A program made the translations under genes and the position numbers. A stretch of DNA of 46,422 nt, from contig CAITEF010000226.1 of NCBI GenBank assembly GCA_903891315.1, positions 1 to 46,422 on the forward strand. The letters run 5' to 3'. Below are positions 9,615 to 26,342 of this stretch, in pieces. The stretch is from an uncultured Rhodospirillales bacterium (lineage in GTDB: Bacteria > Pseudomonadota > Alphaproteobacteria > Acetobacterales > Acetobacteraceae). The notes under the pieces were generated by a model. That model was not told where the DNA came from and did not search any database. It was given only the letters and a program-made list of their open reading frames with translations. Positions within the stretch are counted from its first letter, which is position 1, and the number at the start of each line of letters is the position of its first letter.

Positions 9615-11105
9615 ATGACCACCTCAACCAGCGTTGTCAGCCGACGTGGAATTCTCAATGCAGCGATGGTGGCGGGTGCCGTCCCTGCCTTGATCCCGGT
9701 TGCGGCCTCATCGGCGGAGCAAGCACCGGTCGGCGCACTTCAGAAGAACACCAACACCGAAGGCGGCCAGACCGTCACCTTGGCCAAATACGGTGCCGCT
9801 CTGCGCTACGAGGACATTCCCGCCCCGGTGCTGCAACGCGCCAAGGACGCGATCACCGATGTGGTGGGGGCGATCATCTTCGGCGCGCAACTGCCCTGGA
9901 GCAAAATGATCATCGCCTATGCCCGCGCCACCGGACCGGGCGGGAAGTCGGCGATCATCGGCGCGGGGGGCGGCAATGTGCAGGCCCCGATGGCAGCGTT
10001 TGCGCATGGTGCGATGGCGCACGCATTCGAACTCGACAATCTCACCCGTCCAGACAGCGGGAGCCATCCGGGGGCCGCCCTGTTCTCCTCCGGAATCGCG
10101 GTGGCGCAGGCGCACGGCCTGTCCGGTCGCGCGTTGGTCACTGCCTTCGTCGCCGGGGCCGAGGTGATGATGCGCATCGGCTATGCCACGCTGCATTCGG
10201 ATGAAGAACGCGGCTTTCACGCACCGGGGGCATCCGGCCCGTTCGGCGCGGCCACCGTCACCGGCCATCTGCGCGGCTTCGATGCCAAGAAGATGACCAA
10301 TGCGCTCGGCATCGCGGCCTCCTGCTCCAGCGGTCTGCTCGCCTTCGCGCATTCCGGCGATGGTGCGATGGTCAAGCGGTTCAACATGGGACGCGGTGCA
10401 GAGGGCGGTGTTCTCGCCGCCAGCCTCGCCGCCGAGGGCTTCGAGGGGCCGAGCAAGGTGGTCGAATGCGAGGCAGGCTTCCTGCACGCCTTCTGCCCGG
10501 AATGGGACATGGCGCTGCTCACCGAGGGGCTCGGGCAGAGCTTCAAGACGATGAACATCATGATCAAGCGCTATGCCTGCCACATCACCGCGCACAACCC
10601 GGTCGAAGGCATCCGCAATCTTCGCGCCGAACACGGTTTCAAGCCCGAGGATATCGCGTCGATCAGCATCGCCGGGAGCCAGCGCATGGCCACGATCAAC
10701 AACATCCCCGAGCCGCCGGACGCCCTGCTCGCCCAGTTCAGCATCCCGTTCTGCGTGGCGCTGTCGATGTATCGCGACCCGATCGACCCGCGGTCCTTCG
10801 ACGCCAATGTCGTCAAGGATCCGCACATCCTCGCCCTGACCAAGCTGGTCACCATGGTCGTCACCCAGGGGCAGTCGAACCGTGACCCCACCACCATCGT
10901 CACCGTCAAGCTGAAGGACGGGCGGGAGGTCTCCACCAAGGTGACGGCCTTCACCGGCACGCCGGAGCACCCGCTCGACCGTGCTGGGCTGAAGGAGAAG
11001 TTCATGCTGCTCACGGCGGACCATCCAAAGGCCAAGATGTCGGACCTGTTCGACAGGTTGCAGAGGATCGACACCGAGACATCGTTGGATTGGCTAAGGC
11101 TCTAA
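9615..11105 (+). CDS. MmgE/PrpD family protein with a twin-arginine signal
   Basis: Protein of 496 residues in the MmgE/PrpD family (2-methylcitrate dehydratase, cis-aconitate decarboxylase and isomerase-like members). The all-helical domain begins at about residue 50 (LAKYGAALRYEDIP) and includes the conserved AHAFELDN segment. Unusually, the N-terminus carries VSRRGILNAAM, a hydrophobic stretch and an alanine-rich possible cleavage site near residue 33, which reads as a Tat export signal. Known members are cytoplasmic, so a periplasmic location would be notable. The gene follows the amidohydrolase after 55 bases with AGCGGGAGGAA as ribosome-binding region, and ends before a strong hairpin. 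Confidence 0.88.
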   Translation: MTTSTSVVSRRGILNAAMVAGAVPALIPVAASSAEQAPVGALQKNTNTEGGQTVTLAKYGAALRYEDIPAPVLQRAKDAITDVVGAIIFGAQLPWSKMIIAYARATGPGGKSAIIGAGGGNVQAPMAAFAHGAMAHAFELDNLTRPDSGSHPGAALFSSGIAVAQAHGLSGRALVTAFVAGAEVMMRIGYATLHSDEERGFHAPGASGPFGAATVTGHLRGFDAKKMTNALGIAASCSSGLLAFAHSGDGAMVKRFNMGRGAEGGVLAASLAAEGFEGPSKVVECEAGFLHAFCPEWDMALLTEGLGQSFKTMNIMIKRYACHITAHNPVEGIRNLRAEHGFKPEDIASISIAGSQRMATINNIPEPPDALLAQFSIPFCVALSMYRDPIDPRSFDANVVKDPHILALTKLVTMVVTQGQSNRDPTTIVTVKLKDGREVSTKVTAFTGTPEHPLDRAGLKEKFMLLTADHPKAKMSDLFDRLQRIDTETSLDWLRL

Positions 11106-11145: not shown

Positions 11146-12141
11146 TCAGCGGTATTTGTCGCCAATCGCGATCAGCTTGGTCATCGCCGCCTGACCGATC
11201 AGCGGCGTGCCGACTTGATCCCAGAGCGGGCGCATCGCCGCCGCCCAGGCATGCGCCTGTTCAGGGGTGAGTTCGTAGATCGTCGCACCCGCCTTGCGCA
11301 TCACATCGAAGGAGCGCTCGTTTTCGGCGTTGGTGTTCTCCCAGTTCCACTTCGTCGTCTGATCCATCGCTTCCCGGATCGCCTGACGCGTGGCCGCAGG
11401 CAAGCTGTTCCACCAGGCACGGTTGGCGGTGACGATGTAGAAATCCCAGATATGCTCGGTTTTGGTGATCTGCTTGGCGATCTCGTAGAGATGGCTGCCC
11501 ACCCAGTTGTTCGGCGTCGGCTCCACCGCGTCGATCACGCCCTGGCGCAAGGCGGTCGGCACCGAGCCCCAGGCCATCGTGGTCACGTTCGCCCCCACCT
11601 GACGGAACGTGTCGACATAGACGCCGCCGGGGGCGACGCGGATCTTCACGCCCTTCATGTCCTCCGGCATCAGGATAGGCTTGTCGCCAGTGCGGCCAAC
11701 ATCGCGCGGGCCGTTGAGCCAGATATCGAGCGGCTCCAAACCCTTGGCGCGCATATCGGCGAACAGCACGCCGCCGATATCAGGGTCCGCCACGGCGGCG
11801 CGGATCGCGTCCGGATTGGGGAGCAGATAGGGCAATCCGATCACGGTCAGCTTGGGGAAGGTGCCGGTGAACACGCCGACGCCGGGGGCTGCAATCTGGA
11901 TCGCACCAAGTTGCTGCGCCTGCACCAGCGAGGTTTGGTTGTAGAGCGCTTCGCCGTTGGAGACCGTCACCTGAATCTTGTCGCCGAGTTTCTCGATGAT
12001 GAGCTTCTTCAGCAACGCAAACGACTGCCCCTTCACCGAGGTCTCCTCGGTGTCGTTGACGGCCAGCACGCGGCCTTGGGCCAGAACCTGGAGCGGGAAC
12101 AGCAGCAGCGTCAGCACAATGAGGCGGATCAGGACACGCAT
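11146..12141 (-). CDS. TRAP transporter substrate-binding protein (DctP family)
   Basis: Periplasmic binding subunit of 331 residues. A Sec signal peptide (about residues 1-21, ending VLAQG) is followed by the DctP fold with the characteristic MKGVKIRVAPGGVYVDTF segment and the QGVIDAVEP loop. It is the last gene of the operon, 16 bases after the large permease gene, so permease genes come before the binding protein here. The likely ligand is a carboxylate, because the family binds a substrate carboxyl through a conserved Arg; its identity presumably matches the substrate of the upstream AtuA/PEPM enzymes. Confidence 0.93.
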   Translation of the reverse strand: MRVLIRLIVLTLLLFPLQVLAQGRVLAVNDTEETSVKGQSFALLKKLIIEKLGDKIQVTVSNGEALYNQTSLVQAQQLGAIQIAAPGVGVFTGTFPKLTVIGLPYLLPNPDAIRAAVADPDIGGVLFADMRAKGLEPLDIWLNGPRDVGRTGDKPILMPEDMKGVKIRVAPGGVYVDTFRQVGANVTTMAWGSVPTALRQGVIDAVEPTPNNWVGSHLYEIAKQITKTEHIWDFYIVTANRAWWNSLPAATRQAIREAMDQTTKWNWENTNAENERSFDVMRKAGATIYELTPEQAHAWAAAMRPLWDQVGTPLIGQAAMTKLIAIGDKYR

Positions 12142-12157
12142 GGGGGAACGTCCTTTT

Positions 12158-13483
12158 TCAATTGGTCATCAGGCTGGGCAAGAAGGTGCTGATCCAGGGG
12201 ATGTAGGTGATGATCAGCAATTGAACGATGGTCACGCACATCCAGGGCAATGTCGCGCGGATCACCCGGCCGAGCGGCACGCCAGAGATCGAGCTGACGA
12301 CGAACAGATTCATCCCCATCGGCGGATGCTGCAGGCCAAGCTCGATATTCACCACAACGATGATTGCGAAATGGTAGGGATCAACGCCAACCGCCATCGC
12401 CGCCGGATAGAGCACCGGGATGCAGGTCAGGATCATCGGCACGCCGTCGAGGAACAACCCGGCCAGGATCAGCACGAAATTGACCATCATCAGAAACGCC
12501 CAGCGCGGCATCTGAATGGCGACCAGCCAATGCGCCAGCGCGTCCGGCACGCCCTGATTGGCGAGGAAGAAACCGAACAGGGTGGCGTTGGTGATGATCC
12601 AGAAGATCATGCCGATGCGCGGCGTCACCTTGATCACGGTGGCGGCCAGCGTGTTGATGTGGATCTTGCGATAGACCAGCACGCCGATCATCAATGCAAA
12701 CACCGCGCACATCACCGCCGCCTCGGTCGGCGTGAAGATGGCACCGCCCTGGAATTTCCATTTCCCAAGGCTGAACGCCGGGAAGCCATAGATGCCGATC
12801 ACCAGGAACACCGGCAGGCAGAGCGCAGGAAGTGCGACGCGCAACGTCTCGATGCGCTCGGCCAAATTCATCGGTGGTGGGGTGCTGACCTTCAGATGCT
12901 TGGCCATGAAACGCGCCATCAGCATCAGCAACCCGGTGTAGAGAATGCCCGGCAGAATCCCTGCCACGAACAGCTTCGGGATCGAGTTCTCCGTGACGAA
13001 CCCATACAGGATCAGCGCGATGCTAGGCGGCACCAGAATGCCCAGGGCACCTGCCGTCGCCACAACACCCACCGCGTAATTCGTCGGATAACCCCGTTCG
13101 ATCAACGAGGGAATCATCAGCCCGCCCACGGCGGCAACGGTTGCCGAACTGGATCCGCAGATTGCGGCGAAGAACATCGAGGTCAGCACGGTGGTCATGC
13201 CGAGACCGCCTTGCAGCCGCCCCACCGCCATCGCCGCCAGATTGACCAGATGTCGGACAATCCCGCCCGCCTCCATCAGGGCGGCAGCGAGCAGGAAGAA
13301 CGGCACCGACATCAGCAGAAAATTGTCGAGATTGCCGTAGACCTTCTGCCCCATCACCGCGAGCGGCACCGAGGAGAACATCGTCACGGCAACCGCCACC
13401 GAACCACCGAGGGCAATCGCCACCGGCACGCCGAGAAAGAGCAGCACGCCAAAACTGGCAAAGAGGATCCAGACTTCGATCAT
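12158..13483 (-). CDS. TRAP transporter large permease (DctM family)
   Basis: Inner-membrane subunit of about 441 residues with a dozen hydrophobic segments. The CGSSSATVAAVGGLMIP region and the GILVPPSIALILYGF segment are DctM hallmarks. It forms the Na+-driven translocation unit with the small permease. The ATG at 13483 begins one base after the stop of the DctQ gene; an earlier start at 13510 would extend into that gene and is unlikely. Confidence 0.93.
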   Translation of the reverse strand: MIEVWILFASFGVLLFLGVPVAIALGGSVAVAVTMFSSVPLAVMGQKVYGNLDNFLLMSVPFFLLAAALMEAGGIVRHLVNLAAMAVGRLQGGLGMTTVLTSMFFAAICGSSSATVAAVGGLMIPSLIERGYPTNYAVGVVATAGALGILVPPSIALILYGFVTENSIPKLFVAGILPGILYTGLLMLMARFMAKHLKVSTPPPMNLAERIETLRVALPALCLPVFLVIGIYGFPAFSLGKWKFQGGAIFTPTEAAVMCAVFALMIGVLVYRKIHINTLAATVIKVTPRIGMIFWIITNATLFGFFLANQGVPDALAHWLVAIQMPRWAFLMMVNFVLILAGLFLDGVPMILTCIPVLYPAAMAVGVDPYHFAIIVVVNIELGLQHPPMGMNLFVVSSISGVPLGRVIRATLPWMCVTIVQLLIITYIPWISTFLPSLMTN

Positions 13484-13484
13484 T

Positions 13485-13985
13485 CTATTCCACCGCCATG
13501 CCAGGCTCATGCAACTCGCCGCGCCAGATACGGGGTACGAGTTGGATGTAGCGGAAGATGAACAGCCCCATCGCCAGCGGCGTGGTGGAGAACTGGATCC
13601 AAAGCGGCAATCCGGTCTGCAACGCCATCACATCGGCGTCAACGAGGAACTGCAGGAACAGACAGCCGATATAGAAAATGAAACCGCAATAAATCATCGA
13701 CAGCGACGCTGCCAGCAGATGGAACCAGCGACGGATGTTGTGTGGCAGCCAATCGACCAGAAATCCGACACGCACATGCGCGTGCAATGTCACCGCCCGT
13801 GCGCCGCCGATCATGGCACCCAGCAATGTCAGGTTCACCACAATCGGCTCGATCCAGATGATGCCGGTGTTGAAGACGTAGCGCAGAGTCACCTGGGTGG
13901 CCGCCATCACCAGGGCGAGCAGGATCGTCACCACCATGATGATGTTCTCGAAGCGGGTCAGCAGCCGATCTATCGCCTGCAACAC
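13485..13985 (-). CDS. TRAP transporter small permease (DctQ family)
   Basis: Four-helix inner-membrane subunit of 166 residues that associates with DctM. The YVFNTGIIWIEPI segment after helix 1 and the VRVGFLVDWLP stretch are typical. The gene begins two bases after the stop of the first AtuA gene, tying the transporter to the AtuA/DUF4387/PEPM enzymes in one transcript. Confidence 0.9.
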   Translation of the reverse strand: MLQAIDRLLTRFENIIMVVTILLALVMAATQVTLRYVFNTGIIWIEPIVVNLTLLGAMIGGARAVTLHAHVRVGFLVDWLPHNIRRWFHLLAASLSMIYCGFIFYIGCLFLQFLVDADVMALQTGLPLWIQFSTTPLAMGLFIFRYIQLVPRIWRGELHEPGMAVE

Positions 13986-13987
13986 GG

Positions 13988-15382
13988 TCAGATCTCCTCC
14001 ATCGTGACGGGAAAAAGCTCGTCCAGATTGTCGACTTCGACCAAGTGATAGACGTTGAACCGATAGGCTGGGCCGACCGAAACCTCAGGCGGCGCGAACG
14101 GAAATGCCAGATTGCCGCCGGTCGACAGACGGCCAGGATAGCCGTGATGCAGCAGATATTGCTTGGTCGAGCGTACCACCTCGGCCGCGCGCTGCGGCGT
14201 GGGCGCGATGCATTCACCCAACACGAAGGCCTCGCGCGGCGGCGGGATCGGTGTCGCACTCGGCGGCAGCACGCCATCATAGCCATAGAGGCGGAAGAAA
14301 AGGTCGTAGTCCGGCTCGACGCCTTCGGAGATCAGATTGCGCACGACCTGTTTGACTTCGGCGAAGATCGTCTCATGCGCCGCCATGAAGCGCGGATCGC
14401 TGACACCGGCCAGCAGAACCGCGCGATGGCCAATCAACCGTGCGCCTTCGATCTTCACCGAGGGCTTCGCCGCCGCATGCCACACCGCACCTGTCACCCG
14501 GGTTCGGCGCGCGTCGATGGCGGTGTATTGTGCACCGCGCAGATCGAGTTCGCCCTCCGGCTCGTTGACCACGAACGGGTCGGCCTGCTCGTAGAGCGCG
14601 TGGGCGGCCACCGACATCGGGGTGGCGGCACGTTGCGGGGCCATGCTTTCCAACTCGAACCCCTCGCGGTCGAGGGTTGCCAGCAGCGGGTCCCGCCCGC
14701 CCGGCACGCAGCACAGCGAGGCGCATTCGATGATCTTTGCCATGTGGACCGCAAGCCCTGCCGGAAACCCCAGCATGATCGGCAGCGAGGCGAAGATCGC
14801 GGTGTCGCAGGCGCGTCCGGCGATGATCACGTCGGCCCCCTGCTCGAAGGCGCGGATAAAGCTCGTCGATCCCATCTGGCCGACGATGTTGCCCGCCGCG
14901 TCGATCTCCTCATCGGCAAGCTTTGGAGAGCCGTCGAACCCCCTCACCTTGCCTGCCGCAAGTGCCGCTTTGAGATCATCGCGGTTCATGTCGGCGCGGA
15001 TCGAGGCGAGGCGGAAATGCAGCCCTTCCTCGCGCGCGATCTGCCGCACCATCGCAAGCGTCGCCTCCAGATGCGGTGCCGCCCCTGCCGCACCCGCGGT
15101 GCCGATCACCAACGGCACATCAAGCGAGCGCGCGCCCTTCAGAACACGACGCAGATCGCGGATCGTGGACGCCGGAGCGGTGCCCATCTCACCACTGCCG
15201 AGGCAGTACGGGCCGATATCGATCGAGCCCATGTCGCAGCCGATCAGATCCGGGCGACGCGCAAGCCCCGCCTCGAAACTCTCAGAGGGAATGCCGTAGC
15301 CGAGTTGGCCCGAGGCACCGAGGATGTGCAGCGGGCGATCCTTTGCCGCGAGTTCGGCGGCAAGCCGTTGCGCGGCGCTCAC
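13988..15382 (-). CDS. Acyclic terpene utilisation AtuA family protein (DUF1446), copy 1
   Basis: Protein of 464 residues in the AtuA/DUF1446 family, named after the Pseudomonas citronellol/geraniol cluster, where AtuA's biochemical role is unresolved. The conserved N-terminal block IGCDMGSIDIGPYCLGSGE (residues about 47-65), the ADVIIAGRACDTAIFA motif and the AAHALYEQADPF motif are clear. The ATG overlaps the stop of the DUF4387 gene (ATGA), and such coupling usually means the two proteins work together. A second copy lies at 18436-19821. Nothing else of a terpenoid pathway (geranyl-CoA carboxylase, for example) is in the window, so terpene use should not be assumed. Confidence 0.87.
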   Translation of the reverse strand: MSAAQRLAAELAAKDRPLHILGASGQLGYGIPSESFEAGLARRPDLIGCDMGSIDIGPYCLGSGEMGTAPASTIRDLRRVLKGARSLDVPLVIGTAGAAGAAPHLEATLAMVRQIAREEGLHFRLASIRADMNRDDLKAALAAGKVRGFDGSPKLADEEIDAAGNIVGQMGSTSFIRAFEQGADVIIAGRACDTAIFASLPIMLGFPAGLAVHMAKIIECASLCCVPGGRDPLLATLDREGFELESMAPQRAATPMSVAAHALYEQADPFVVNEPEGELDLRGAQYTAIDARRTRVTGAVWHAAAKPSVKIEGARLIGHRAVLLAGVSDPRFMAAHETIFAEVKQVVRNLISEGVEPDYDLFFRLYGYDGVLPPSATPIPPPREAFVLGECIAPTPQRAAEVVRSTKQYLLHHGYPGRLSTGGNLAFPFAPPEVSVGPAYRFNVYHLVEVDNLDELFPVTMEEI

Positions 15383-15681
15383 AGCTCAATCCCAAGCAAG
15401 GGCGCGTGCTGTTGTGCGCCATAGACGTCACAATCCCCCGGATCACCCGACATCACCAGCCGGTCGATGGTCAGCTTCACCGCGCGGGCGGGCGGGTAGT
15501 CGATCACGGTGAGCCGGTTGCGCGGCACGCCAAGGCGCTGGGCCGCTTGCTCGCCCAGGCTGTCCAGGGCGGCGCGGACCTTCTGATAGGCCTCTTCACT
15601 GTCGAATAGCAGATCGAAGGTCTGCTTGCGCGGACCGGCGTTCTTGCTGCGGATCACACGCGCGATCTCATCAAGGCGCAT
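15379..15681 (-). CDS. DUF4387 family protein, copy 1
   Basis: Small protein of 100 residues of unknown function. It shares with its paralogue at 18116-18424 the blocks IRSKNAGP (about residues 9-16), TFDLLFDSEE and a C-terminal QQHAPLLGIE. The ATG at 15681 overlaps the end of the PEPM gene by 11 bases, and its stop overlaps the AtuA start by four bases. DUF4387 genes recur beside DUF1446 genes, so a role as small partner subunit of AtuA is a reasonable inference. No enzymatic motif is recognisable. Confidence 0.85.
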   Translation of the reverse strand: MRLDEIARVIRSKNAGPRKQTFDLLFDSEEAYQKVRAALDSLGEQAAQRLGVPRNRLTVIDYPPARAVKLTIDRLVMSGDPGDCDVYGAQQHAPLLGIEL

Positions 15682-16567
15682 GGTTGCCCCCGAATTCCAC
15701 CGTCTCCTCTTCAATGGCATAATACTCATCAAGACGAATCACGTCTTCAATCTGCTGGCGGGCGACGACGAAATCTTCCTGGCTGACCAGCGTTGAATCG
15801 CCAGTCTCGCGCAATTCCACCAGCGCCTTGCGGATAAAGTGAAACGCGGTGCCGAGCACAATCTGCGCGTCGATGCAGGCGACATAGCCCATGTCGCGCA
15901 GTTGGTTGGTGGTGAACAGCGGCCGACCATCGCGGTTGCCACGGCTTTGCACATAGACCAACGGCAGCTTCACCCGGCGCACCGCCGCTTCGGCCTCGGC
16001 GTTGGAGCGCGGAAACAGCAGACCCATATCCGCCCCAGTTTCGGCGGCGGCGTTGAGACGGTCGACCGCCTCGTCCAGCCCCTCGGTGCGGGCGGAATCG
16101 GTGCGGGCGATGATGGTGAAGTCAGGGTCGAGCCGATCACGCTCGCGGCACGCCATGCGCAGCTTCATCAGCCACTCTTCGCGCGGGGCGCAATGAACAT
16201 GGTATTTGTGATAATGCGCCCGCTTGGGGAAATGCTGGTCCTCCAGATGAAGACCGGCCAGCCCCTGACGGATCGCAACCGCCACCGTGCGCATCGTGTG
16301 CAACGGCTCGCCAAACCCAGCGCCGGCGTCGAAAATCACCGGGATTTCCACTTGGCTGGCCACTTCGCCCGCCACGTCGATCTGCTCGTTCATCGTCAAC
16401 AGCGGCTCGGTGATCGCACGCGAGCCGCCGGTGACGTAGCCACCAACATAGGTGGCCTCGAAGCCAACCGACTGAACGAGCCGACCGCCAATCGGGTCGT
16501 AGACCGCAGGCATGTGAAGGAATTTTCCCTCACGCAGCAACGCACGGAAGCGGGCGGACATTGTCAT
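15671..16567 (-). CDS. PEP mutase/isocitrate lyase superfamily protein with altered active site, copy 1
   Basis: TIM-barrel protein of 298 residues in the superfamily of methylisocitrate lyase and PEP mutase. The barrel landmarks are present (LEDQ at 108-111, IIARTDS at 152-158, LFTTNQL), but key residues differ: the metal-binding DxD is D80-A-G82, the lyase loop KRCGH is KRAHY (115-119, no Cys) and the FPEA glutamate is Arg187. The paralogue at 16592-17497 shares these losses. It is therefore probably not a standard C-C lyase; hydrolysis, decarboxylation or a mutase-type reaction are possible. Start at ATG 16567, with GGGAGAG upstream. Confidence 0.85.
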   Translation of the reverse strand: MTMSARFRALLREGKFLHMPAVYDPIGGRLVQSVGFEATYVGGYVTGGSRAITEPLLTMNEQIDVAGEVASQVEIPVIFDAGAGFGEPLHTMRTVAVAIRQGLAGLHLEDQHFPKRAHYHKYHVHCAPREEWLMKLRMACRERDRLDPDFTIIARTDSARTEGLDEAVDRLNAAAETGADMGLLFPRSNAEAEAAVRRVKLPLVYVQSRGNRDGRPLFTTNQLRDMGYVACIDAQIVLGTAFHFIRKALVELRETGDSTLVSQEDFVVARQQIEDVIRLDEYYAIEEETVEFGGNHAP

Positions 16568-16591
16568 TGGTTTCTCTCCCTGCTGGCCGGT

Positions 16592-17497
16592 TTAGGCCTT
16601 CTTTTTCTCGGTCGTCCTCTCTTCGATGCGATACAGTTCTGGCAGGCCGATCAGGTCTTCCACGGCCTGACGGGCATCAATGGCTTCCTGCTGGCTCATC
16701 GCCACCTCACCAGTGTCATGCAGGCGGGTGAATGCGTCGGTGAGCGCGCGGTAGGTCACCAAGGTGCTCAGGATGGCAATCGAGATAACCTTGTAGCCCA
16801 TATCCGCCAATTCCGCCGGGCTCGGCACCGGCCGACCAACGCGGTTGCCGTGGCTGACGACGTAAACCAACGGAGCATCGATCTCCTTCGGGGCACGGAT
16901 CGTCTCTTCCAAAGAGTTCGGGAAGAGCATGATCAGATCGGCCCCGGCGCGCGCATAGGCGTTGGCGCGCTTGACGCCTTCGGCAAAGCCGTCGGTGCGC
17001 ATCGCATCCGTGCGCGCCATCAGCACGAAATTCGGATCCGTCTTTGCCTCCACGGCGACGCTGATCTTCTCCAGCATGTGATCCATATCGATCACGTGCT
17101 CGACATAGTCGCGGTGATAATGCGCACGCTTGGGGAAGACCTGGTCTTCCATCTGCACGCCACCGAGACCGGCGCGTTCCATCTCCCGGATGGTGCGCCA
17201 GACCTGAATCGCCTCGCCGAAGCCGCAGCCGATATCGACGATGGTTGGAACCGTCACCGCCGCCTGGATCTTGCGCGATTCATCGGCCAGTTCGGACATG
17301 CCGAACATCGGCTCGGTGACACAAGTATGCGCCCCCATCGCGAACCCGCCGATGCCAAGGCATTTGAAGCCCGCCTTCTGCGCGATGCGCGCCATCATCG
17401 GATCACAGACCGCCGGGCGAATAAACGCACCCGGCGCGTTCATCAGGGCACGCAAAGCGGCAGGAGCGTTGAAGGTCATTTTCGGGGCCTCATTCAT
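16592..17497 (-). CDS. PEP mutase/isocitrate lyase superfamily protein with altered active site, copy 2
   Basis: Protein of 301 residues homologous to the next gene in the operon. The same positions are changed: D88-I-G90 for DxD, K123-R-A-H-Y127 for KRCGH, and Asn194 for the FPEA glutamate, while MEDQ (116-119) and LMARTDA (159-165) remain. Its start overlaps the end of the HD-domain gene by eight bases and the first copy follows after 24 bases. Neighbouring paralogues may form a hetero-oligomer or act on two related substrates. Database names such as carboxyphosphonoenolpyruvate phosphonomutase for this type should not be taken literally. Confidence 0.85.
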   Translation of the reverse strand: MNEAPKMTFNAPAALRALMNAPGAFIRPAVCDPMMARIAQKAGFKCLGIGGFAMGAHTCVTEPMFGMSELADESRKIQAAVTVPTIVDIGCGFGEAIQVWRTIREMERAGLGGVQMEDQVFPKRAHYHRDYVEHVIDMDHMLEKISVAVEAKTDPNFVLMARTDAMRTDGFAEGVKRANAYARAGADLIMLFPNSLEETIRAPKEIDAPLVYVVSHGNRVGRPVPSPAELADMGYKVISIAILSTLVTYRALTDAFTRLHDTGEVAMSQQEAIDARQAVEDLIGLPELYRIEERTTEKKKA

Positions 17498-18098
17498 GAG
17501 CCAGGGTCCATTTCTCGGAATACATCTTGGCCCCAGCGAGGCTCAGACCGGCATCGGTGTCGGCAAAATCGGCATAGAACAGCGCCGCCGCTTCCCAGGT
17601 TTTGCCACGCATGTTGCTGCCATGGGTGTGGGTGATCACCAGATTGATCATCTCCAGCGACAGCCCCTTGGAGAACATCTTGTGCGACGCATAGACGGCG
17701 TGCTGGATGTTCTTGCCGAGCCTGCTCTGCCGACCCGGACGCGGACCGGTATTGCCGCGGGTCTGTGCCGGATCCGGCTCGTATTCGACGAGCTTGCTGA
17801 CATCGTGCAGCAAGCCCACCGCGATCATCGTGTCGCGGTCATAACTGCGACCGGAGAGCTTGAGCGCGGTCTCGCAAATCTGCATCGCCATCTGTGTGAC
17901 GCCACGGATGTGCTCGACGAGGCAGCGGCCCTTCTCACCCTTGGTGTTTTTCGGAATCTCTTCGAGGCTGTCCCACGCCATCTCGGAAGCCATCTCAATC
18001 CAGATCTCGCTTACGATGCGGCGCAGATTGGGGTCCTGGATTTCGGTTATCTCGGGGAACACTCTGGCCACGTCTTCGTGGGTCATTTGCAGAGCCAT
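17490..18098 (-). CDS. HD-domain protein (putative metal-dependent phosphohydrolase)
   Basis: Protein of 202 residues with an HD-superfamily fold: H63 in VEHIRGV, the H98-D99 pair in LLHDVSK, and further histidines at 133, 139 and 157/159 (HAVYASH, ITHTHG). HD proteins usually hydrolyse phosphate esters or nucleotides, but some act as oxygenases or lyases. It sits inside the mirror-ordered AtuA/DUF4387/PEPM operon, 17 bases after a DUF4387 gene and overlapping the next PEPM gene by eight bases. It is the only member of that module present once, so a central catalytic role is plausible but unproven. Confidence 0.82.
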   Translation of the reverse strand: MALQMTHEDVARVFPEITEIQDPNLRRIVSEIWIEMASEMAWDSLEEIPKNTKGEKGRCLVEHIRGVTQMAMQICETALKLSGRSYDRDTMIAVGLLHDVSKLVEYEPDPAQTRGNTGPRPGRQSRLGKNIQHAVYASHKMFSKGLSLEMINLVITHTHGSNMRGKTWEAAALFYADFADTDAGLSLAGAKMYSEKWTLAHE

Positions 18099-18115
18099 CG
18101 GATTGTCCTTTCCGG

Positions 18116-18424
18116 TCAGGGGATCTCGATATCGATCAACGGGGCATATTGCTGGCCGCCATGGCCGTCGCTGTCGAGCACGTCGCCTTGGAAACGCGGG
18201 CGCGGGATCGAGGCCTTGATGGCGAGTGCAGGCGGCACGATGAAGAACTGCACTTGGTTGGCCGATAAGTTGTAGAGCCGCGCGATCAACTCGGCGTTCA
18301 GCACGTGGCTGTCGCAGACACGTTTGAATGTCGCCTCGTCGTCGAACATGATGTCGAAGGTCAGTTCGAACGGCCCAGCATTCTTGCTGCGGATCAATCG
18401 GGCGAGTTCGCCGAGTTTGGCCAT
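18116..18424 (-). CDS. DUF4387 family protein, copy 2
   Basis: Small protein of 102 residues with the same conserved blocks as its paralogue: IRSKNAGP near residue 11, TFDIMFDDE, and a C-terminal GQQYAPLIDIEI. The start is the ATG at 18424, 11 bases after the stop of the second AtuA gene; the frame is open further upstream only as an AtuA shadow. Function unknown; its position beside AtuA repeats the arrangement of copy 1. Confidence 0.85.
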   Translation of the reverse strand: MAKLGELARLIRSKNAGPFELTFDIMFDDEATFKRVCDSHVLNAELIARLYNLSANQVQFFIVPPALAIKASIPRPRFQGDVLDSDGHGGQQYAPLIDIEIP

Positions 18425-18435
18425 GTTTGCGCTCC

Positions 18436-19821
18436 TCAGCCGACGTTGATGTATTCGATGGGGAACATCTCGAACGGATCGGCGGGCTCGACGACGTGGT
18501 TGACGCAGAAGCGATAGACCGCGCCGCGTTCCAGATAGGCCGGGCTGTAGATGCAGGCGACCGCTGTGATCAGCCCGCCCCATTCCGGGATCGGCAGATG
18601 CAACGCCTGGTGCCGCGCCATCGAGACGATGGTGGTCGCGATCTCCTGGGTGGAGGCGGTGGCCTCCATCACCATGCACAACTCGTGTGAGCGTATCTCG
18701 GTCTCCGGCTCCAACGGCCCCATCGTGCCGTTCTTGCCGTAGAGGCGGACATTGAAGATGTAGCCCTCGGCGGCTTTGTCGCCCTTCATCACGTCGGCGA
18801 CGCGCTCGTGCACCTTGGTCTCAAGGCGGGCGACCCAGCTATCGATCTGGCGGATGATGTAGGGGTCCCGGATGCCGCCGATCACCACACTCTGATAGCC
18901 GACCAGTTCGGCCCCTTCGAGCTTGACGGTGTAGGTCTGTGCCGGTTCGAACACGCTGCCTTGCACCCGCACGCGGCGGTGATCGAGCGCCTCGTAAGTC
19001 GCATGGGTCAGATCGAGAACGCCGCTCGATTCCACCAGACGATACGGGTTGGAGTTCTCATACAGCGCATGGGCGGCCACCGATTGCGGCGTGGCACGCA
19101 TGGTGGGATCCAGCGGCTCGATGTCGAAATGGCGCCGGCCAAAGGTGACGAACACGCTGTCCGGATTGGTCCGCTCGACAGCGACTGCGGCACCACATTC
19201 GAGCAGCTTGGCCGCGTGCCACGCCATGCCGGGATCGACGCCCATGCGGATCGGAATTCCAGCGAAAATCGCGCAATCGCTCGAACGCCCGGCGATCACC
19301 ACATCGGCACCCTCATCGAGCGCACGCAGGAACGGGTCTTCACCCATCATGCCGACGATGCGCTCGGCACGGTCGATCACGCCCTCATCGAAATCCGGTG
19401 CGGGCGAGAGCGGGCGAATCCGACCCTCGGCGAGACGGCGCTTCAGGTAGTCCTTGTTCTGCTCGGCATGGATCAACGCGAGCTTGAAGCTCAGCCCTTC
19501 CTCCCGTGCGATCTCCAACACGATGTCACGCACCAGCTCCAGATGCGGCTTGCCACCGGCAGTACCGGCCGAGCCGATCAGCAGCGGAATGCCGTTGGCA
19601 CGCGCTCCCTTGAGCATGATGCGGAGGTCGCGCTTTATCGAGCGGGCGGGAAACGAAGGCTTGCCGGTGCCAAGCGGCGCGGGGCCGGGGTCGGTTGAGC
19701 CTGCGTCACAGCCGATGAAATGCGGATTTCGAGCGAGACCAGCGGCGAACGAGCTTTCCTTAAAGCCGGAACCACATACACCGCTGGCAGAGACGACACG
19801 CACTTCAACCGGATCGTCCAT
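18436..19821 (-). CDS. Acyclic terpene utilisation AtuA family protein (DUF1446), copy 2
   Basis: Protein of 461 residues and the first gene of the ten-gene operon. It has the canonical DUF1446 opening IGCDAGSTDPGPAPLGTG (about residues 37-54), ADVVIAGRSSDCAIFAG and AAHALYENSNPY. It differs considerably from copy 1, including the VFVTFGRRHFDIEPL region, so the duplication is old or the copies were acquired separately. The ATG at 19821 has CGGGAGAA upstream. The 154-base leader before it should hold the operon promoter. Confidence 0.87.
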   Translation of the reverse strand: MDDPVEVRVVSASGVCGSGFKESSFAAGLARNPHFIGCDAGSTDPGPAPLGTGKPSFPARSIKRDLRIMLKGARANGIPLLIGSAGTAGGKPHLELVRDIVLEIAREEGLSFKLALIHAEQNKDYLKRRLAEGRIRPLSPAPDFDEGVIDRAERIVGMMGEDPFLRALDEGADVVIAGRSSDCAIFAGIPIRMGVDPGMAWHAAKLLECGAAVAVERTNPDSVFVTFGRRHFDIEPLDPTMRATPQSVAAHALYENSNPYRLVESSGVLDLTHATYEALDHRRVRVQGSVFEPAQTYTVKLEGAELVGYQSVVIGGIRDPYIIRQIDSWVARLETKVHERVADVMKGDKAAEGYIFNVRLYGKNGTMGPLEPETEIRSHELCMVMEATASTQEIATTIVSMARHQALHLPIPEWGGLITAVACIYSPAYLERGAVYRFCVNHVVEPADPFEMFPIEYINVG

Positions 19822-21052: not shown

Positions 21053-22135
21053 TTAACCGCGAAACGGCTCCGGCAGCCAAGACCCATATGCCGGATGGTC
21101 CGGCCGCAACGGCAGATCAACCGGAAGGCGTTGCTCTGCGGAGTGATAAAGAGCGGTCACCAACTCAAGCGAGTTGCGCGCATCCTGCAATGTCACCGGC
21201 AATTCCGAGCCGTCGACCAAAGCTGTGTGCATCGCCGCGAACAATCCGGCAAAGCGAGACGGCACGAAGCGCCAATCCGCAAGTGCCGCGTCAATCGCCG
21301 TGGCGGCGGCCTTTGAGTTCGGGATGATGTGCCAGGGATCATTGGCGGGCGCGTAGGGTTCCAGCGCGCTTTGGAAGGTGACGTGCTCGAAACACAAACG
21401 TAGCCGAGACAGCTCGCGCGCCGAGCCGAGCGTGACTGACAACGAGGCAAGCGCGCCATTCGCCATCTCCAGCGATGCCGTCGCCGTGTCCTCGACCTCA
21501 ATCGGATTGACCAATGTGGCGGTGCGCGCGAACACCGAGGCGACCGGGCCCATCAGATAGCTCAGCAGATCATGCGCATGGATCGCGTGACCCAGCAGCG
21601 CGCCGCCGAGTTCGGTGGCAAAGCGACCACGCCAGGGCACCGAATAATAGGCGGCGTCGCGGTTCCAGGCGGTCTCGATGGTCGCCAAATAGGGCTTCCC
21701 GGCAAGACCTTGCTGGATAATGTGCCGCGCCTTCTGCAAGCCATTGCCGAAGCGGTATTGAAAGATCGGCATCAGCCGCCCCTTCGCCCCATGCGCCGCC
21801 GCGATCAGACGATCCACCTCGGCAAGTGAGCCGACCAGCGGCTTTTCGCACACCACATGCTTCCCCGCCGCCAACGCCGCCAAACATTGCTCCAGATGCA
21901 ACGATGGCGGCGTGCAGATATCGATGATGTCGATATCCGGCATCGCCAGAACTTCGTCGAACGAAGCGACCTGCCGGGCTATCCCGAATTGCTTGCCGAC
22001 ATTGCCCAACCGCACCGGATCGATGTCACACAGCACCACGACCTCAAACAGATCGGGACGTGCGCTATAGCCCTCGGCAATATGCGCCCGCCCAATCCCG
22101 CCGCCAATCACGGCGACTTTGAATATCCGGCTCAT
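21053..22135 (-). CDS. Gfo/Idh/MocA family oxidoreductase, copy 1
   Basis: NAD(P)-dependent sugar dehydrogenase-like protein of about 360 residues: N-terminal Rossmann domain with GGGIGRAH, the CEKPL motif carrying the conserved Lys, then the alpha/beta domain with a GGALLGHAIHAHDLL segment providing the catalytic-region histidines. The ATG at 22135 overlaps the stop of the preceding paralogue (ATGA). With that gene and the lactonase it forms a sugar or inositol oxidation set beside a sugar importer. Confidence 0.88.
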   Translation of the reverse strand: MSRIFKVAVIGGGIGRAHIAEGYSARPDLFEVVVLCDIDPVRLGNVGKQFGIARQVASFDEVLAMPDIDIIDICTPPSLHLEQCLAALAAGKHVVCEKPLVGSLAEVDRLIAAAHGAKGRLMPIFQYRFGNGLQKARHIIQQGLAGKPYLATIETAWNRDAAYYSVPWRGRFATELGGALLGHAIHAHDLLSYLMGPVASVFARTATLVNPIEVEDTATASLEMANGALASLSVTLGSARELSRLRLCFEHVTFQSALEPYAPANDPWHIIPNSKAAATAIDAALADWRFVPSRFAGLFAAMHTALVDGSELPVTLQDARNSLELVTALYHSAEQRLPVDLPLRPDHPAYGSWLPEPFRG

Positions 22136-23136
22136 GCGCTTTTCTCCGCCAAGGCCTGCGCCTTGAGTGCGATTTCCATCGCCTTGAAACACCGCGCCTG
22201 CGGCATCGCTGTCTCGGTGCGGTGCAGCACGTCATGGATCAATTGCCGCCCATAGGGCAGCTCGACATGGCGGCAATCGATACGCTGGATGCTGTGATTG
22301 TCGGCCAAGAACAGGTGATCAGCGCCGTTCTCGCCACCGAGATCGAAATATTTGCGCAGTTCGATGGTCCCATGCGTGCCGATCAGCATCAGCCGCCCAT
22401 CACCCCAGGTTGGCATCGCATCCGGGGTGAACCAATCGACGCGGATATAACCCGTGGCATCTTTGGTCCGCAGCAGCATCTCACCGAAATCCTGCAACTC
22501 GGGATCGGCCGGATTGTCGCGATTGGCCACACAGGCGCTGGCGATCTCCGCGTCCTCGGCCCCGGTGAAGAACAGGAACTGCTCGACCTGATGCGAGGCG
22601 ATGTCGGTCAGGATGCCGCCATATTTCTCGCGCTCGAAAAACCACGCCGGTCTTGTCGCCCGCCGCAGCCGATGCGGGCCGATGCCGATGCAATTGACCA
22701 GCTTGCCAATCGCCCCGGCCTGCACCAACTCGCCCGCCTTGACCACGCAGCGAACCTCGAAATGCTCGGAATAGCAGATCGAGTAGATCCGCCCGGTCTC
22801 CGCCTGCACGCGGCGCAGTCCATCAAGCTGAGCCAGCGAAGTCGCCCCCGGCTTGTCGGACATGTAGTCCTTCCCCGCCCGCATCACCTCGACACCGAGC
22901 GGCGCACGCTCCGAGCTGATCCCGCTGCTCACCACCAGTGCAATGGCCGGATCATTCAAGATCTCCCGGTAATCCGCCACGCGCTTGGCCTGCGGAAACC
23001 GCACGGCGAATGGTGCGGCGAGCATGTCCAGGTTTGTGTAAAAGCTGGACAAATGCGCCCCTGCCCGCAGCAGGAGATCGACCTGGGCGTAGATATGCGG
23101 GTGATCGATGCCGATGGCGGCGAACTGGATGCTCAT
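22132..23136 (-). CDS. Gfo/Idh/MocA family oxidoreductase, copy 2
   Basis: Protein of 334 residues with an atypical Rossmann start (AAIGIDHPHIYAQ in place of a glycine-rich GxGxxG) and the SDKPGA motif that supplies the conserved Lys. The C-terminal domain has GGILTDIASHQVEQF, corresponding to the usual GG..xDxxxHxxD catalytic segment. The glycine-poor loop suggests altered cofactor binding. It lies six bases downstream of the MalG-type permease gene and overlaps the next dehydrogenase gene. Confidence 0.85.
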   Translation of the reverse strand: MSIQFAAIGIDHPHIYAQVDLLLRAGAHLSSFYTNLDMLAAPFAVRFPQAKRVADYREILNDPAIALVVSSGISSERAPLGVEVMRAGKDYMSDKPGATSLAQLDGLRRVQAETGRIYSICYSEHFEVRCVVKAGELVQAGAIGKLVNCIGIGPHRLRRATRPAWFFEREKYGGILTDIASHQVEQFLFFTGAEDAEIASACVANRDNPADPELQDFGEMLLRTKDATGYIRVDWFTPDAMPTWGDGRLMLIGTHGTIELRKYFDLGGENGADHLFLADNHSIQRIDCRHVELPYGRQLIHDVLHRTETAMPQARCFKAMEIALKAQALAEKSA

Positions 23137-23142
23137 ATGACC

Positions 23143-23991
23143 TCAGCGTTTCATGCCGGTTGTCGCGATGCCCTGGATGAGCAGACGCTGGAAAAACACA
23201 AAGAGTGCGAGCACCGGCAGCAGCGTCAGCACCGCCATGGCGAACATCGCGCCCCAATCGGATTGCCCGCCTGAATCGAGAAAGCCGCGCAATCCGAGCT
23301 GCACGGTGAAATTCTCAACGTCAGAGAGATAGATCAGCGGGCCGAAGAAATCGTCCCAGGTGAAGATGAAGGTGAAGATCGCCGCCGTCGCCAGCGCGGG
23401 CACCGAGAGCGGCAGGATGATCTTCCAGTAGATCCGCCACGGCCCGCAGCCATCCATGACCGCCGCCTCATCCAACTCGCGCGGCAGGCCGCGGAAAAAC
23501 TGAGTCAGCAGGAAGATGAAGAACGCATCCACCGCCATGAATTTCGGCACCACCAACGGCAGAAAGCTGTTCACCCAATCGAGGTTCAGAAACAAGATAT
23601 ACTGCGGCACCAATGTCACCTGATACGGGATCATCAGAGTCATCAGCATCAGAGAGAAGCAGATATTACGACCGGGAAACCGCATCCGGCTGACGGCATA
23701 TGCGGCCAGCGAGCAAGAGATCAGATTGCCGGTCACCGACAACATCGAGATCAGCAACGAGTTCCAAAAGAACTGGCCGAAACTGACCTGCAAGCCATTC
23801 CAGCCGCGCGAGTACGCGCTGAAATCCCAGTGTTCCGGAAACAGCGAGAAGGTTTCGAAAATCTCGGCATTCGGCTTCAGCGAGGACGCAAACATCCACA
23901 ACAGCGGATAGAGCATCACCAGCGAGGCGGCGCAGAGGACGATGTGATAGGCCAGCGAGCGCGGCCAGGGGCGTCGGGCGCGTTCAATCAT
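23143..23991 (-). CDS. Carbohydrate ABC transporter permease (MalG/UgpE type)
   Basis: Inner-membrane permease of about 282 residues with six hydrophobic segments and the EAA coupling loop ELDEAAVMDGCGPWRIYW. The start is ATG 23991, eight bases inside the end of the preceding permease gene; the longer frame to 24165 lies within that gene. With the neighbouring permease and binding protein it forms a CUT1-type sugar importer. Confidence 0.9.
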   Translation of the reverse strand: MIERARRPWPRSLAYHIVLCAASLVMLYPLLWMFASSLKPNAEIFETFSLFPEHWDFSAYSRGWNGLQVSFGQFFWNSLLISMLSVTGNLISCSLAAYAVSRMRFPGRNICFSLMLMTLMIPYQVTLVPQYILFLNLDWVNSFLPLVVPKFMAVDAFFIFLLTQFFRGLPRELDEAAVMDGCGPWRIYWKIILPLSVPALATAAIFTFIFTWDDFFGPLIYLSDVENFTVQLGLRGFLDSGGQSDWGAMFAMAVLTLLPVLALFVFFQRLLIQGIATTGMKR

Positions 23992-24886
23992 CGTAATGCA
24001 CCCACAGCCGCTCGGTGACGAAGGCCACCGCCGTGACCGCCACAATCGCCAGCACCAGCAACCAGGCCAGCGCCGCCGCATAGCCCATCCGCAGATAGCC
24101 GAACGCCTCCTGATACAGGTACAGCGTGTAGAACAATGTCGAGTTGATCGGCCCACCCGATCCACCGCTGACGATGAAGGCCGGGGTGAACGCCTTCAGC
24201 GCGTCAATGGTCTGCACGACGACGTTGAAGAAGATCACCGGTGTCAGCATCGGCACGGTGATCCGCCAGAATTGCTGACGTGGCGTGGCCCCATCGATGC
24301 TCGCCGCCTCGAACAGATCCTGCGGCAATTGGCGCAGACCGGCCAGGAAGATGATCATCGGCGAGCCGAACTGCCACACGCTGAGCGCGACAAGCGTGTA
24401 AAGCGCGGTGTTGGGATCAGACACCCAACTCGGCCCGTGAATGCCGAACACCAGCAGCACATGGTTGAGCAGCCCGTCGCCCGCAAACACCTTGCGCCAC
24501 AGGGTCGCGATGGCAACGGAGGCACCCAGCAAAGACGGAAGATAGAACAGCGCCCGATAGATCGGCAGCCCGCTGATCCCCTTGTTGAGCACCACCGCAA
24601 TCGCGAGCGCGAAGCCGAGCTTCAGCGGCACGGACATCGCGACATAAAGCAGCGTGACGTGGACGGAATCCGCCACTTTGCTGTCCGCCGTCATGATGCG
24701 AACGTAGTTCTCCAGCCCCACCCAATGCGGCGTGCCGATCAGGTCGTAATTGGTGAACGACAGATAAAGCGACGCCAAAGCTGGCCCCAGAGTGAGGCCG
24801 AAGAACCCCAACAACCAGGGCAGAAGGAACACATACCCCGCCAAGGATGGCCGTCGCCGACGAATGATCTGGGCAGTCACACTCAC
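23984..24886 (-). CDS. Sugar ABC transporter permease (MalF/UgpA type)
   Basis: Inner-membrane permease of 300 residues with about six helices, beginning with an early hydrophobic stretch after a basic tail (IRRRRPSLAGYVFLLPWLLG). The coupling loop is DLFEAASIDGATPRQQFW. It follows the binding-protein gene after five bases and overlaps the MalG-type gene by eight. No ATPase gene is in this operon. Confidence 0.9.
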   Translation of the reverse strand: MSVTAQIIRRRRPSLAGYVFLLPWLLGFFGLTLGPALASLYLSFTNYDLIGTPHWVGLENYVRIMTADSKVADSVHVTLLYVAMSVPLKLGFALAIAVVLNKGISGLPIYRALFYLPSLLGASVAIATLWRKVFAGDGLLNHVLLVFGIHGPSWVSDPNTALYTLVALSVWQFGSPMIIFLAGLRQLPQDLFEAASIDGATPRQQFWRITVPMLTPVIFFNVVVQTIDALKAFTPAFIVSGGSGGPINSTLFYTLYLYQEAFGYLRMGYAAALAWLLVLAIVAVTAVAFVTERLWVHYDD

Positions 24887-24891
24887 CCGGA

Positions 24892-26184: not shown

Positions 26185-26342
26185 CTCGTTTCCCCTTCAG
26201 AGTCCCGCATATGCAGCGGCGTATTTTTTTTGTTCCGCACCGATTGAAGCATTGGCTTCCAGGCGACGGAAGGTAGCGCTATCGTGGCGTGCCCTCGCCT
26301 GAAAGACAAGCCGCGTGGCGGGATGGTGTGAGGGGAGACGCA
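26185..26342. promoter_or_regulatory. Divergent promoter region of the sugar operon and a Gfo/Idh/MocA gene
   Basis: This 158-base gap separates two divergent start codons and must hold promoters for both. It contains a T8 tract near 26224-26231 and the 8-base palindrome GCATATGC at 26207-26214. I see no convincing sigma-70 hexamer pair and no local regulator gene. Confidence 0.4.

What the first reader, a model, noticed from the sequence alone, without database searches (positions are those of the whole stretch)
11146..19821. Mirror-ordered duplicated AtuA-DUF4387-PEPM module with its own TRAP importer
In transcription order the operon reads AtuA, DUF4387, HD protein, PEPM, PEPM, DUF4387, AtuA, DctQ, DctM, DctP. 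The enzyme genes are palindromic in family order around the two PEPM genes, all on one strand, with overlaps or gaps of at most 24 bases. Simple tandem duplication gives A-B-C-A-B-C, not A-B-C-C-B-A on one strand, so the order suggests selection for two cooperating sets or stepwise recruitment. AtuA and DUF4387 have no settled biochemical function, and the coupled TRAP importer implies an extracellular carboxylate as substrate. This is my best candidate for an undescribed catabolic system.
Basis: partly seen in the sequence, partly recalled or inferred. Interest (0 to 1): 0.82.

Follow-up and report, generated by a model that had tools for sequence, protein, structure and literature searches.

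The report
Two-module organic-acid uptake and cleavage operon
A bacterial operon joins two older gene sets, each probably able to split a carboxylic acid, to an importer for such acids; its odd mirror-like gene order comes from the join, and it carries an uncharacterised branch of a well-known enzyme family.

Summary
On the minus strand, 19821-11146, the order is AtuA1, DUF4387-1, HD, PEPM1, PEPM2, DUF4387-2, AtuA2, DctQ, DctM, DctP.

The mirror order is explained. AtuA-DUF4387 pairs come in two lineages with opposite internal orders. Among 75 adjacent pairs sampled, 50 read AtuA-DUF4387 and 25 DUF4387-AtuA; the 25 form one clade (bootstrap 100, one change). The window holds one pair of each. 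It joins modules seen apart elsewhere: PEPM-HD-AtuA1-DUF4387 with divergent TRAP genes (L138, L139) and PEPM2-DUF4387-AtuA2 (L143). The ten-gene set was not seen again in the loci examined.

"No settled function" is out of date: AtuA+DUF4387 is deposited as citramalate lyase CmlA/CmlB (PDB 9erq, 9evf). Both window pairs match it and keep nearly all family-conserved residues.

Less familiar are the two PEPM proteins, from a clade lacking the catalytic Cys and one metal-motif Asp, and the HD protein.

Best reading: a carboxylate uptake and C-C cleavage operon built by stepwise recruitment. Substrate unknown, perhaps a hydroxylated, branched acid. A new variant of a known kind.

The parts
18436..19821 (-). 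AtuA1, large subunit of a CmlAB-like pair, AD-type lineage (AtuA before DUF4387)
   Evidence: PF07287 1e-20; PDB 9erq_A citramalate lyase subunit A E 3.9e-91; AD-type in tree
18116..18424 (-). DUF4387-1, small subunit partner of AtuA1
   Evidence: PF14330 1e-35; 9erq_B citramalate lyase subunit B E 8.1e-20; ATG start read, stop from the ORF
17490..18098 (-). HD-domain protein, putative binuclear-metal hydrolase or oxygenase
   Evidence: PF01966 2.7e-5; no PDB sequence match at E 1; H63, D99, K102, H133, H157, D177 invariant in 18 of 18 sequences, the window's included; next to PEPM genes in 5 of 17 other loci
16592..17497 (-). PEPM1, isocitrate lyase/PEP mutase superfamily, KRAHYH clade without the catalytic Cys
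   Evidence: PF13714 1.4e-38; alignment to PrpB chains; tree and motifs
15671..16567 (-). PEPM2, same superfamily and clade, separate branch
   Evidence: PF13714 4.9e-32; best PDB 3lye oxaloacetate acetyl hydrolase 2.6e-34; tree
15379..15681 (-). DUF4387-2, small subunit partner of AtuA2 (ATG start at 15681)
   Evidence: PF14330 2.6e-26; 9erq_B E 9.5e-20
13988..15382 (-). AtuA2, large subunit of a CmlAB-like pair, DA-type lineage (DUF4387 before AtuA)
   Evidence: PF07287 1.5e-17; 9erq_A E 1.6e-100; DA clade UFBoot 100
13485..13985 (-). DctQ, TRAP small membrane subunit
   Evidence: PF04290 1.8e-19
12158..13510 (-). DctM, TRAP large membrane subunit
   Evidence: PF06808 6.8e-100
11146..12141 (-). 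DctP, TRAP substrate-binding protein; counterparts of the clamp residues Arg and Lys kept (Arg168, Lys37), other itaconate/succinate contact residues changed
   Evidence: PF03480 3.8e-67; PDB relatives 9dsy, 9dtl, 9ht3; site residues against PMC12599236

Best explanation
The operon is a catabolic unit for an extracellular carboxylate, built by joining two pre-existing enzyme modules to one TRAP importer. DctPQM imports the acid. Each AtuA-DUF4387 pair works like the CmlAB (citramalate lyase) enzyme and splits a C-C bond of a hydroxylated acid into a 2-oxo acid such as pyruvate plus a smaller acid; I do not file either pair as a citramalate lyase. The two PEPM proteins and the HD protein act on the same or the preceding intermediates. 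Shown: gene content, order, families, two AtuA lineages with opposite order in the sample, sub-modules recurring in other genomes, intact conserved residues. Inferred: both pairs are lyases, the substrate is a branched hydroxy-dicarboxylate near citramalate or 2-alkylmalate, the roles of PEPM and HD, and co-transcription. The mirror order is the join of an AD-type pair (with HD and PEPM1) to a DA-type pair (with PEPM2), not a duplication and not selection for symmetry. My odds: composite recruitment 0.85; both pairs are CmlAB-like lyases 0.6; substrate in the citramalate/2-alkylmalate class 0.35.
For: AtuA1 and AtuA2 match CmlA (E 3.9e-91 and 1.6e-100) and both DUF4387 match CmlB. Identity to the E. 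coli O157 homologue is 40% and 41% over almost full length; that homologue matches 9erq_A at 1.3e-291 and lies in the glutamate mutase/methylaspartate ammonia-lyase/fumarase cluster. Of 38 AtuA columns at least 95% conserved in 75 sequences, AtuA2 keeps 38 and AtuA1 37. Gene order follows lineage: DA one clade, support 100/100, one change, shuffled mean 21; DUF4387 tree 2 changes, shuffled mean 21. Modules apart: L138 and L139 PEPM-HD-AtuA1-DUF4387 with TRAP genes on the other strand; L143 PEPM2-DUF4387-AtuA2; L183 two AtuA-DUF4387 pairs with DctP, DctQ, DctM. All 5 other genomes of the 299-genome family sample in which (E 1e-40) found a KRAHYH-GNR PEPM also hold an AtuA gene, against 78 of 298 overall (chance 0.001, taking genomes as independent, although two are one genus). 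The 3 with an HD protein at least 50% identical are among these 5. DctP is related to itaconate- and succinate-binding proteins (PMC12599236, passages read).
Against: No substrate or activity is shown. AtuA1 and AtuA2 lie outside the branch holding the E. coli homologue, so the substrate may differ. Most KRAHYH PEPM genes stand alone: 28 of 33 outside the window have no AtuA or DUF4387 in the DNA fetched, some of it short. In G326 and G380 the PEPM and AtuA genes are present but not together. Five of the seven IctP ligand-contact residues compared are changed in DctP, so a plain C4-dicarboxylate is not supported. The joint set was not found elsewhere, and 7 of 7 other genomes of the genus lack AtuA at E 1e-20, so a passing or decaying assembly cannot be excluded. 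A consensus scan found no sigma-70-like promoter and fewer terminator-like sites than shuffles give.
Confidence: 0.6

Rival explanations
1. The two enzyme sets arose by duplication of one module followed by inversion or rearrangement inside the operon.
For: Each paralogue pair is about equally diverged, 40-42%, as one old block duplication would predict. PEPM1 and PEPM2 both belong to the same KRAHYH clade.
Against: AtuA1 and AtuA2 sit in different lineages, each shared with other genomes and each with its own order. PEPM1 groups with L018 and PEPM2 with a separate 29-row clade. No inverted repeats.
Confidence: 0.05
2. Two parallel branches of one pathway: AtuA1-DUF4387-1-HD-PEPM1 and PEPM2-DUF4387-2-AtuA2 act in turn, or on the two stereoisomers or homologues, of one imported acid.
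For: All ten genes on one strand with tiny gaps. In L138 and L139 a single set lies with TRAP genes, so the second set could extend the range. L183 has two AD pairs with TRAP genes.
Against: No direct evidence of order of action; the DA module of L143 has no TRAP genes beside it.
Confidence: 0.35
3. Citramalate is not the substrate; the AtuA pairs act on another acid and the citramalate lyase name fits only the enterobacterial branch.
For: Large divergence from CmlA (40-41%). AtuA-DUF4387 pairs elsewhere sit near citrate-synthase-like, LLM flavin oxidoreductase, aldehyde dehydrogenase, MmgE/PrpD, amidohydrolase or CoA-transferase genes. DctP site residues differ from those of dicarboxylate binders.
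Against: Nearly all strongly conserved AtuA residues are kept, and in L187 the neighbours (HpcH/HpaI lyase, a MaoC protein that also matches mesaconyl-CoA hydratase, MmgE/PrpD) belong to branched hydroxy-acid chemistry.
Confidence: 0.45

Closest known systems
Citramalate lyase CmlAB (PDB 9erq, 9evf), relative in the enterobacterial glutamate fermentation cluster
   Same: AtuA plus DUF4387 subunits, 40-41% identity for AtuA over almost full length, conserved residues kept, AtuA before DUF4387 as in pair 1
   Different: Here two divergent pairs from other branches, one with reversed gene order, with TRAP, PEPM and HD genes; no glutamate mutase, methylaspartase or fumarase among the ten genes. 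The paper behind the PDB entries was not found in the library.
Isocitrate lyase/PEP mutase superfamily (PrpB, 2,3-dimethylmalate lyase, oxaloacetate acetylhydrolase)
   Same: Same Pfam family and aligned active-site segments
   Different: KRAHYH in place of KRCGH and D-x-G in place of D-x-D, with a GNR motif; 33 of 35 clade members carry the G and 68 of 68 Cys-type rows carry D
IctPQM itaconate TRAP importer of Pseudomonas aeruginosa (PMC12599236; search listing and passages read)
   Same: TRAP importer linked to genes needed for growth on a branched C5 dicarboxylate; DctP E 1.1e-39 to 9ht3
   Different: Only Lys41 and Arg169 of the 7 contact residues compared are kept; position 234 is Asp here, and also in the L138 DctP
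AtuA of the acyclic terpene utilisation pathway (PMC4847356, search listing only)
   Same: Pfam family PF07287
   Different: Not compared directly; the ten genes include no acyl-CoA carboxylase or dehydrogenase, which I recall as the core of that pathway

Membership tests
CmlAB citramalate lyase | AtuA-family large subunit homologous to 9erq_A | tested here: met
CmlAB citramalate lyase | DUF4387 small subunit homologous to 9erq_B, gene adjacent | tested here: met
CmlAB citramalate lyase | Residues conserved across the AtuA family kept | tested here: met
   38 of 38 columns in AtuA2, 37 of 38 in AtuA1; which residues are catalytic is not known to me
CmlAB citramalate lyase | Same clade as the enterobacterial enzyme | tested here: not met
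   L223 groups with the Klebsiella plasmid gene L012, not with the window genes
CmlAB citramalate lyase | Cleaves citramalate | not testable with these tools
   needs enzyme assay
Methylisocitrate lyase PrpB or a Cys-type ICL-superfamily lyase | Catalytic Cys in KRCGH and D-x-D metal motif (catalytic roles recalled) | tested here: not met
   Ala and D-x-G in both; PrpB NCBIfam score 172.7 and 140.9 against a cut-off of 354.4
TRAP transporter | DctP, DctQ and DctM genes adjacent | tested here: met
C4-dicarboxylate/itaconate TRAP binding protein | IctP ligand-contact residues | tested here: not met
   2 of the 7 compared are kept; residue list from PMC12599236 passages; numbering shifted by 20, which fits all 7 letters; an eighth (V34) fell outside the alignment
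HD-domain metalloprotein | H...HD...D metal ligands | tested here: met
   H63, H98, D99, D177 present in the window protein; H63, D99, D177 invariant in 18 of 18, H98 not
HD mixed-valent diiron oxygenase (PhnZ or MIOX type) | Diiron oxygenase activity and fold | tested here: inconclusive
   ligand pattern compatible (likeness to PhnZ/MIOX recalled); single-sequence model too poor (pLDDT 46.6)

The most novel reading that the evidence does not exclude
The operon encodes a catabolic route not described in the papers my searches listed: an imported branched hydroxy-acid is processed by a Cys-less, Asp-reduced branch of the isocitrate lyase/PEP mutase superfamily with a new active-site chemistry, helped by an HD metalloprotein, and its products are split without CoA by two CmlAB-type lyases of different specificity.
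Probability: 0.35. Interest if true: 0.65.

Novelty: new variant of a known kind. Interest (0 to 1): 0.45.

Why it matters
It turns an apparent oddity of gene order into a rule that can be tested widely: AtuA-DUF4387 pairs of two lineages keep opposite orders. It ties proteins of unknown role to a deposited enzyme activity, and it points to a Cys-less clade of a classic enzyme superfamily (members by record title include SAR116-cluster single-cell genomes and alphaproteobacterial MAGs) whose reaction can now be approached through its partner genes and importer.

Tried and rejected
Inverted or tandem duplication as the source of the mirror order: rejected on trees and on absence of inverted repeats.

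Contamination of the assembly as the source of the contig (contamination 4.65%): made unlikely by a 77.7% identical syntenic block at window 21071-27211 in G395 of the same genus. Synteny ends at 21071, so the operon lies in a variable stretch; no empty site was recovered, since beyond that point the G395 contig (9,903 bases) carries other genes and then ends.

HD structure from one sequence: mean pLDDT 46.6, not used for fold search.

Papers: searches for DUF1446/DUF4387, AtuA with TRAP, citramalate lyase, CmlA, 9ERQ/9EVF and the methylaspartate pathway did not bring up the CmlAB paper (one search held 26 papers and listed 20, held 42 and listed 15). The search for the superfamily (9 listed of 10) showed no paper with a Cys-less clade in its title or visible abstract; I did not read those papers. 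PMC12290011 held none of the terms tried.

Genome searches for HD gave only distant matches outside the family sample: 1 of 288 other genomes in the class at E 1e-10 and 1 of 387 in the phylum at E 1e-18. A PEPM1 search of the order at E 1e-60 gave 3 of 374 others, all known.

The DUF4387 tree needs 2 changes, not 1, and has few columns. In the quick AtuA tree the AD rows needed 2 changes because the two rows without an adjacent partner count as outside; the long row L185 was left out of the careful tree. Those two rows (L185, L191) are not in the 75 pairs. The 75 sequences are another subset of the 77: full-length rows without L185. One of 122 PEPM rows was dropped as shorter than 200 aa. Nine loci that repeat parts of others were left out of the family sets.

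A first motif survey used some wrongly framed ORFs; the counts come, with frames checked. My first count of HD loci beside PEPM, 5 of 14, covered the window's family alone; with the 3 plasmid loci it is 5 of 17.
Full report
Observation. Transcription order is AtuA1 (19821-18436), DUF4387-1 (18424-18116), HD (18098-17490), PEPM1 (17497-16592), PEPM2 (16567-15671), DUF4387-2 (15681-15379), AtuA2 (15382-13988), DctQ (13985-13485), DctM (13510-12158), DctP (12141-11146). Gaps are at most 24 nt; the largest overlap is 26 (DctQ/DctM). The paralogue pairs are 40% (AtuA), 42% (DUF4387) and 40% (PEPM) identical. The first convergent plus-strand gene is a MmgE/PrpD protein (9615-11105), preceded by an amidohydrolase and a GntR/FCD regulator; upstream lie a lactonase, Gfo/Idh oxidoreductases and a binding protein of ABC type.

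Known function of the core pair. AtuA1 and AtuA2 match PDB 9erq/9evf, deposited as citramalate lyase subunit A (E 3.9e-91 and 1.6e-100); both DUF4387 proteins match its subunit B (8.1e-20 and 9.5e-20). The E. coli O157 gene ECs_0760 is a close relative of that chain (E 1.3e-291 over 456 of 456 residues). It is followed by the 318-nt gene ECs_0759, in the cluster of glutamate mutase, methylaspartate ammonia-lyase and fumarase. A 2015 paper on that cluster still listed the gene as unknown DUF1446 and left the fate of citramalate open (PMC4682846, passages). A lyase that cleaves citramalate to pyruvate and acetate would close that pathway (inference). I found no paper for the PDB entries in the library.

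Are both pairs likely active? In 75 AtuA sequences, the window's included, 38 columns are at least 95% conserved; AtuA2 keeps all and AtuA1 all but one. They include D39, D44, R179, D182, K205, E208, C209, E255, K300, E302, E380 and H442 (AtuA1 numbering), shared with the E. coli homologue. Of the 15 DUF4387 columns at that level in 77 sequences, both window proteins keep all 15.

Why the order is a mirror. I collected 77 distinct AtuA proteins, the two window genes included, from plasmid records, genome contigs and the window's own family. Seventy-five have DUF4387 within 400 bp on the same strand: 50 read AtuA then DUF4387, 25 read DUF4387 then AtuA. In the careful tree of 76 rows the 25 form one clade with support 100/100 and need one change; shuffled labels need 21. 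The DUF4387 tree, with few columns, needs two changes against 21. Window pair 1 is AD-type and pair 2 is DA-type, so any operon that holds one of each on one strand reads A-D-D-A or D-A-A-D. L186 shows the second case, with transporter-like genes (named by eye) on the other strand between the pairs. Sampling was by similarity to AtuA1 and then down the list, mostly from one alphaproteobacterial family (L032, an alphaproteobacterial MAG contig, appears to be the same contig as G364:C142, same length), with some Beta- and Gammaproteobacteria.

The modules exist apart. In G412 and G462 (one other genus of the family) the set is PEPM (65-67% to PEPM2), HD (50%), AtuA (52-53% to AtuA1), DUF4387 (58-59%), with DctQ upstream on the opposite strand, and in G412 also DctM (60%) and DctP (52%); the G462 contig begins in or just after DctQ. 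In G364 the set is PEPM2 (68%), DUF4387 (53%), AtuA2 (68%) in the window's own order, without TRAP genes beside it. In L038 and L040, close relatives of each other, DUF4387-AtuA2 lies about 3.2 kb before PEPM2. L200 holds DUF4387-AtuA2 between a 43-residue PEPM2-like stretch and a short HD-like gene, which I read as remnants. In G468 an AtuA1 that is 71% identical lies with a second AD pair and DctP, DctQ and DctM genes, with no PEPM or HD match in the 20 kb read. G326 and G380 hold PEPM2-like and AtuA2-like genes apart: about 20 kb apart on one contig in G326, on different contigs in G380. The complete ten-gene set was seen only in the window. The 7 other genomes of its genus gave no AtuA match at E 1e-20, no PEPM1 match at 1e-40 and no HD match at 1e-12. 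The neighbouring block at 21071-27211 is syntenic with one of them, so the contig belongs to the genus and the operon sits in a variable stretch. Horizontal gain is the simplest reading (inference).

Functional linkage. In the 299-genome family sample, one search found a KRAHYH-GNR PEPM in 5 other genomes; all 5 have an AtuA gene, against 78 of 298 overall (chance 0.001). HD proteins at least 50% identical occur in 3 of these genomes and in no other genome of the sample; two of the three are one genus. HD homologues lie beside a PEPM gene in 5 of 17 other loci, all 5 among the 14 loci of the window's family, three times beside a Cys-type PEPM. Against obligate coupling, 28 of 33 KRAHYH PEPM genes outside the window have no AtuA or DUF4387 in the DNA fetched.

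PEPM. Both window proteins belong to a group of 35 sequences with KR[AV]HYH where Cys-type members have K-CG[HF]; 33 of 35 have D-x-G (2 have D-x-H) where 68 of 68 Cys-type rows have D-x-D, and 33 of 35 carry GNR. Alignment to PrpB puts the Ala at the position that is Cys in 1mum and Ser in 1xg3; that this Cys is catalytic, and that the Asp pair binds metal, is recalled. The group is one side of a branch with modest support, 87. PEPM1 pairs with L018 (Pseudorhizobium pelagicum, 58-60%), which has no AtuA in the 20.9 kb fetched; PEPM2 lies in a 29-row clade. Their reaction is unknown; a plain methylisocitrate lyase is not supported by motif or by score.

HD. H63, D99, K102, H133, H157 and D177 are invariant in 18 of 18 sequences; H98 is present in the window protein but replaced in some homologues. 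That suits a two-metal HD centre, hydrolase or oxygenase (inference; likeness to PhnZ and MIOX recalled). The single-sequence model was poor.

Importer. The nearest solved relatives of DctP are the succinate protein DctP (9dsy) and the itaconate protein IctP (9dtl, 9ht3) (ligands from PMC12599236 passages). Of 7 IctP contact residues compared, Lys41 and Arg169 are kept; Ser91, Lys94, Gln171, Asn209 and Val234 are Gly, Val, Ala, Pro and Asp. The DctP of L138 has the same Asp. A carboxylate with a polar group where itaconate and succinate binders have Val or Leu is my reading (inference).

Mechanism proposed. Uptake of a hydroxylated, probably branched acid by DctPQM; conversion by PEPM and HD proteins; C-C cleavage by two CmlAB-like pairs to a 2-oxo acid and a smaller acid that enter central metabolism. 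The first and last steps rest on homology and linkage; the middle is open.

Novelty. Each part belongs to a known kind. The combination, the order rule and the Cys-less PEPM clade as partner are what is new here as far as my searches show.

Noticed in passing
window 9615-11105: MmgE/PrpD protein with an N-terminal twin-arginine-like stretch (SRRGILNA...; motif judged by eye), convergent with the operon; the assembly has 13 matches to it at E 1e-30, itself included.
   Followed up: partly
L223:8934-10618: E. coli O157 Sakai genes ECs_0760 and ECs_0759, annotated as methylaspartate ammonia-lyase and acyl-CoA synthetase, look like the CmlA and CmlB genes, so the annotation is probably wrong (ECs_0760 tested; ECs_0759 judged by its length and by a DUF4387 match in my tblastn set).
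   Followed up: partly
L187:1342-10562: A DA-type AtuA-DUF4387 pair lies near genes of an HpcH/HpaI lyase, a MaoC protein that also matches mesaconyl-CoA hydratase, a family III CoA transferase and MmgE/PrpD.
   Followed up: partly
L208:4559-7477: An amidohydrolase-family gene ends 4 bp before a DA-type DUF4387-AtuA pair; a similar gene, judged by eye, lies about 1 kb before the pair in L201.
   Followed up: no
L105, L106, L108-L111, L113-L117, L144, L149: A further Cys-less PEPM clade with the KRAHHH motif and D-G-A in place of D-x-D, 13 rows, support 100, in the window's family.
   Followed up: partly
L012:7983-16042: Klebsiella plasmid region with an AtuA-DUF4387 pair, aldehyde dehydrogenases and a fumarate hydratase; its AtuA groups with the E. 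coli CmlA-like gene.
   Followed up: no
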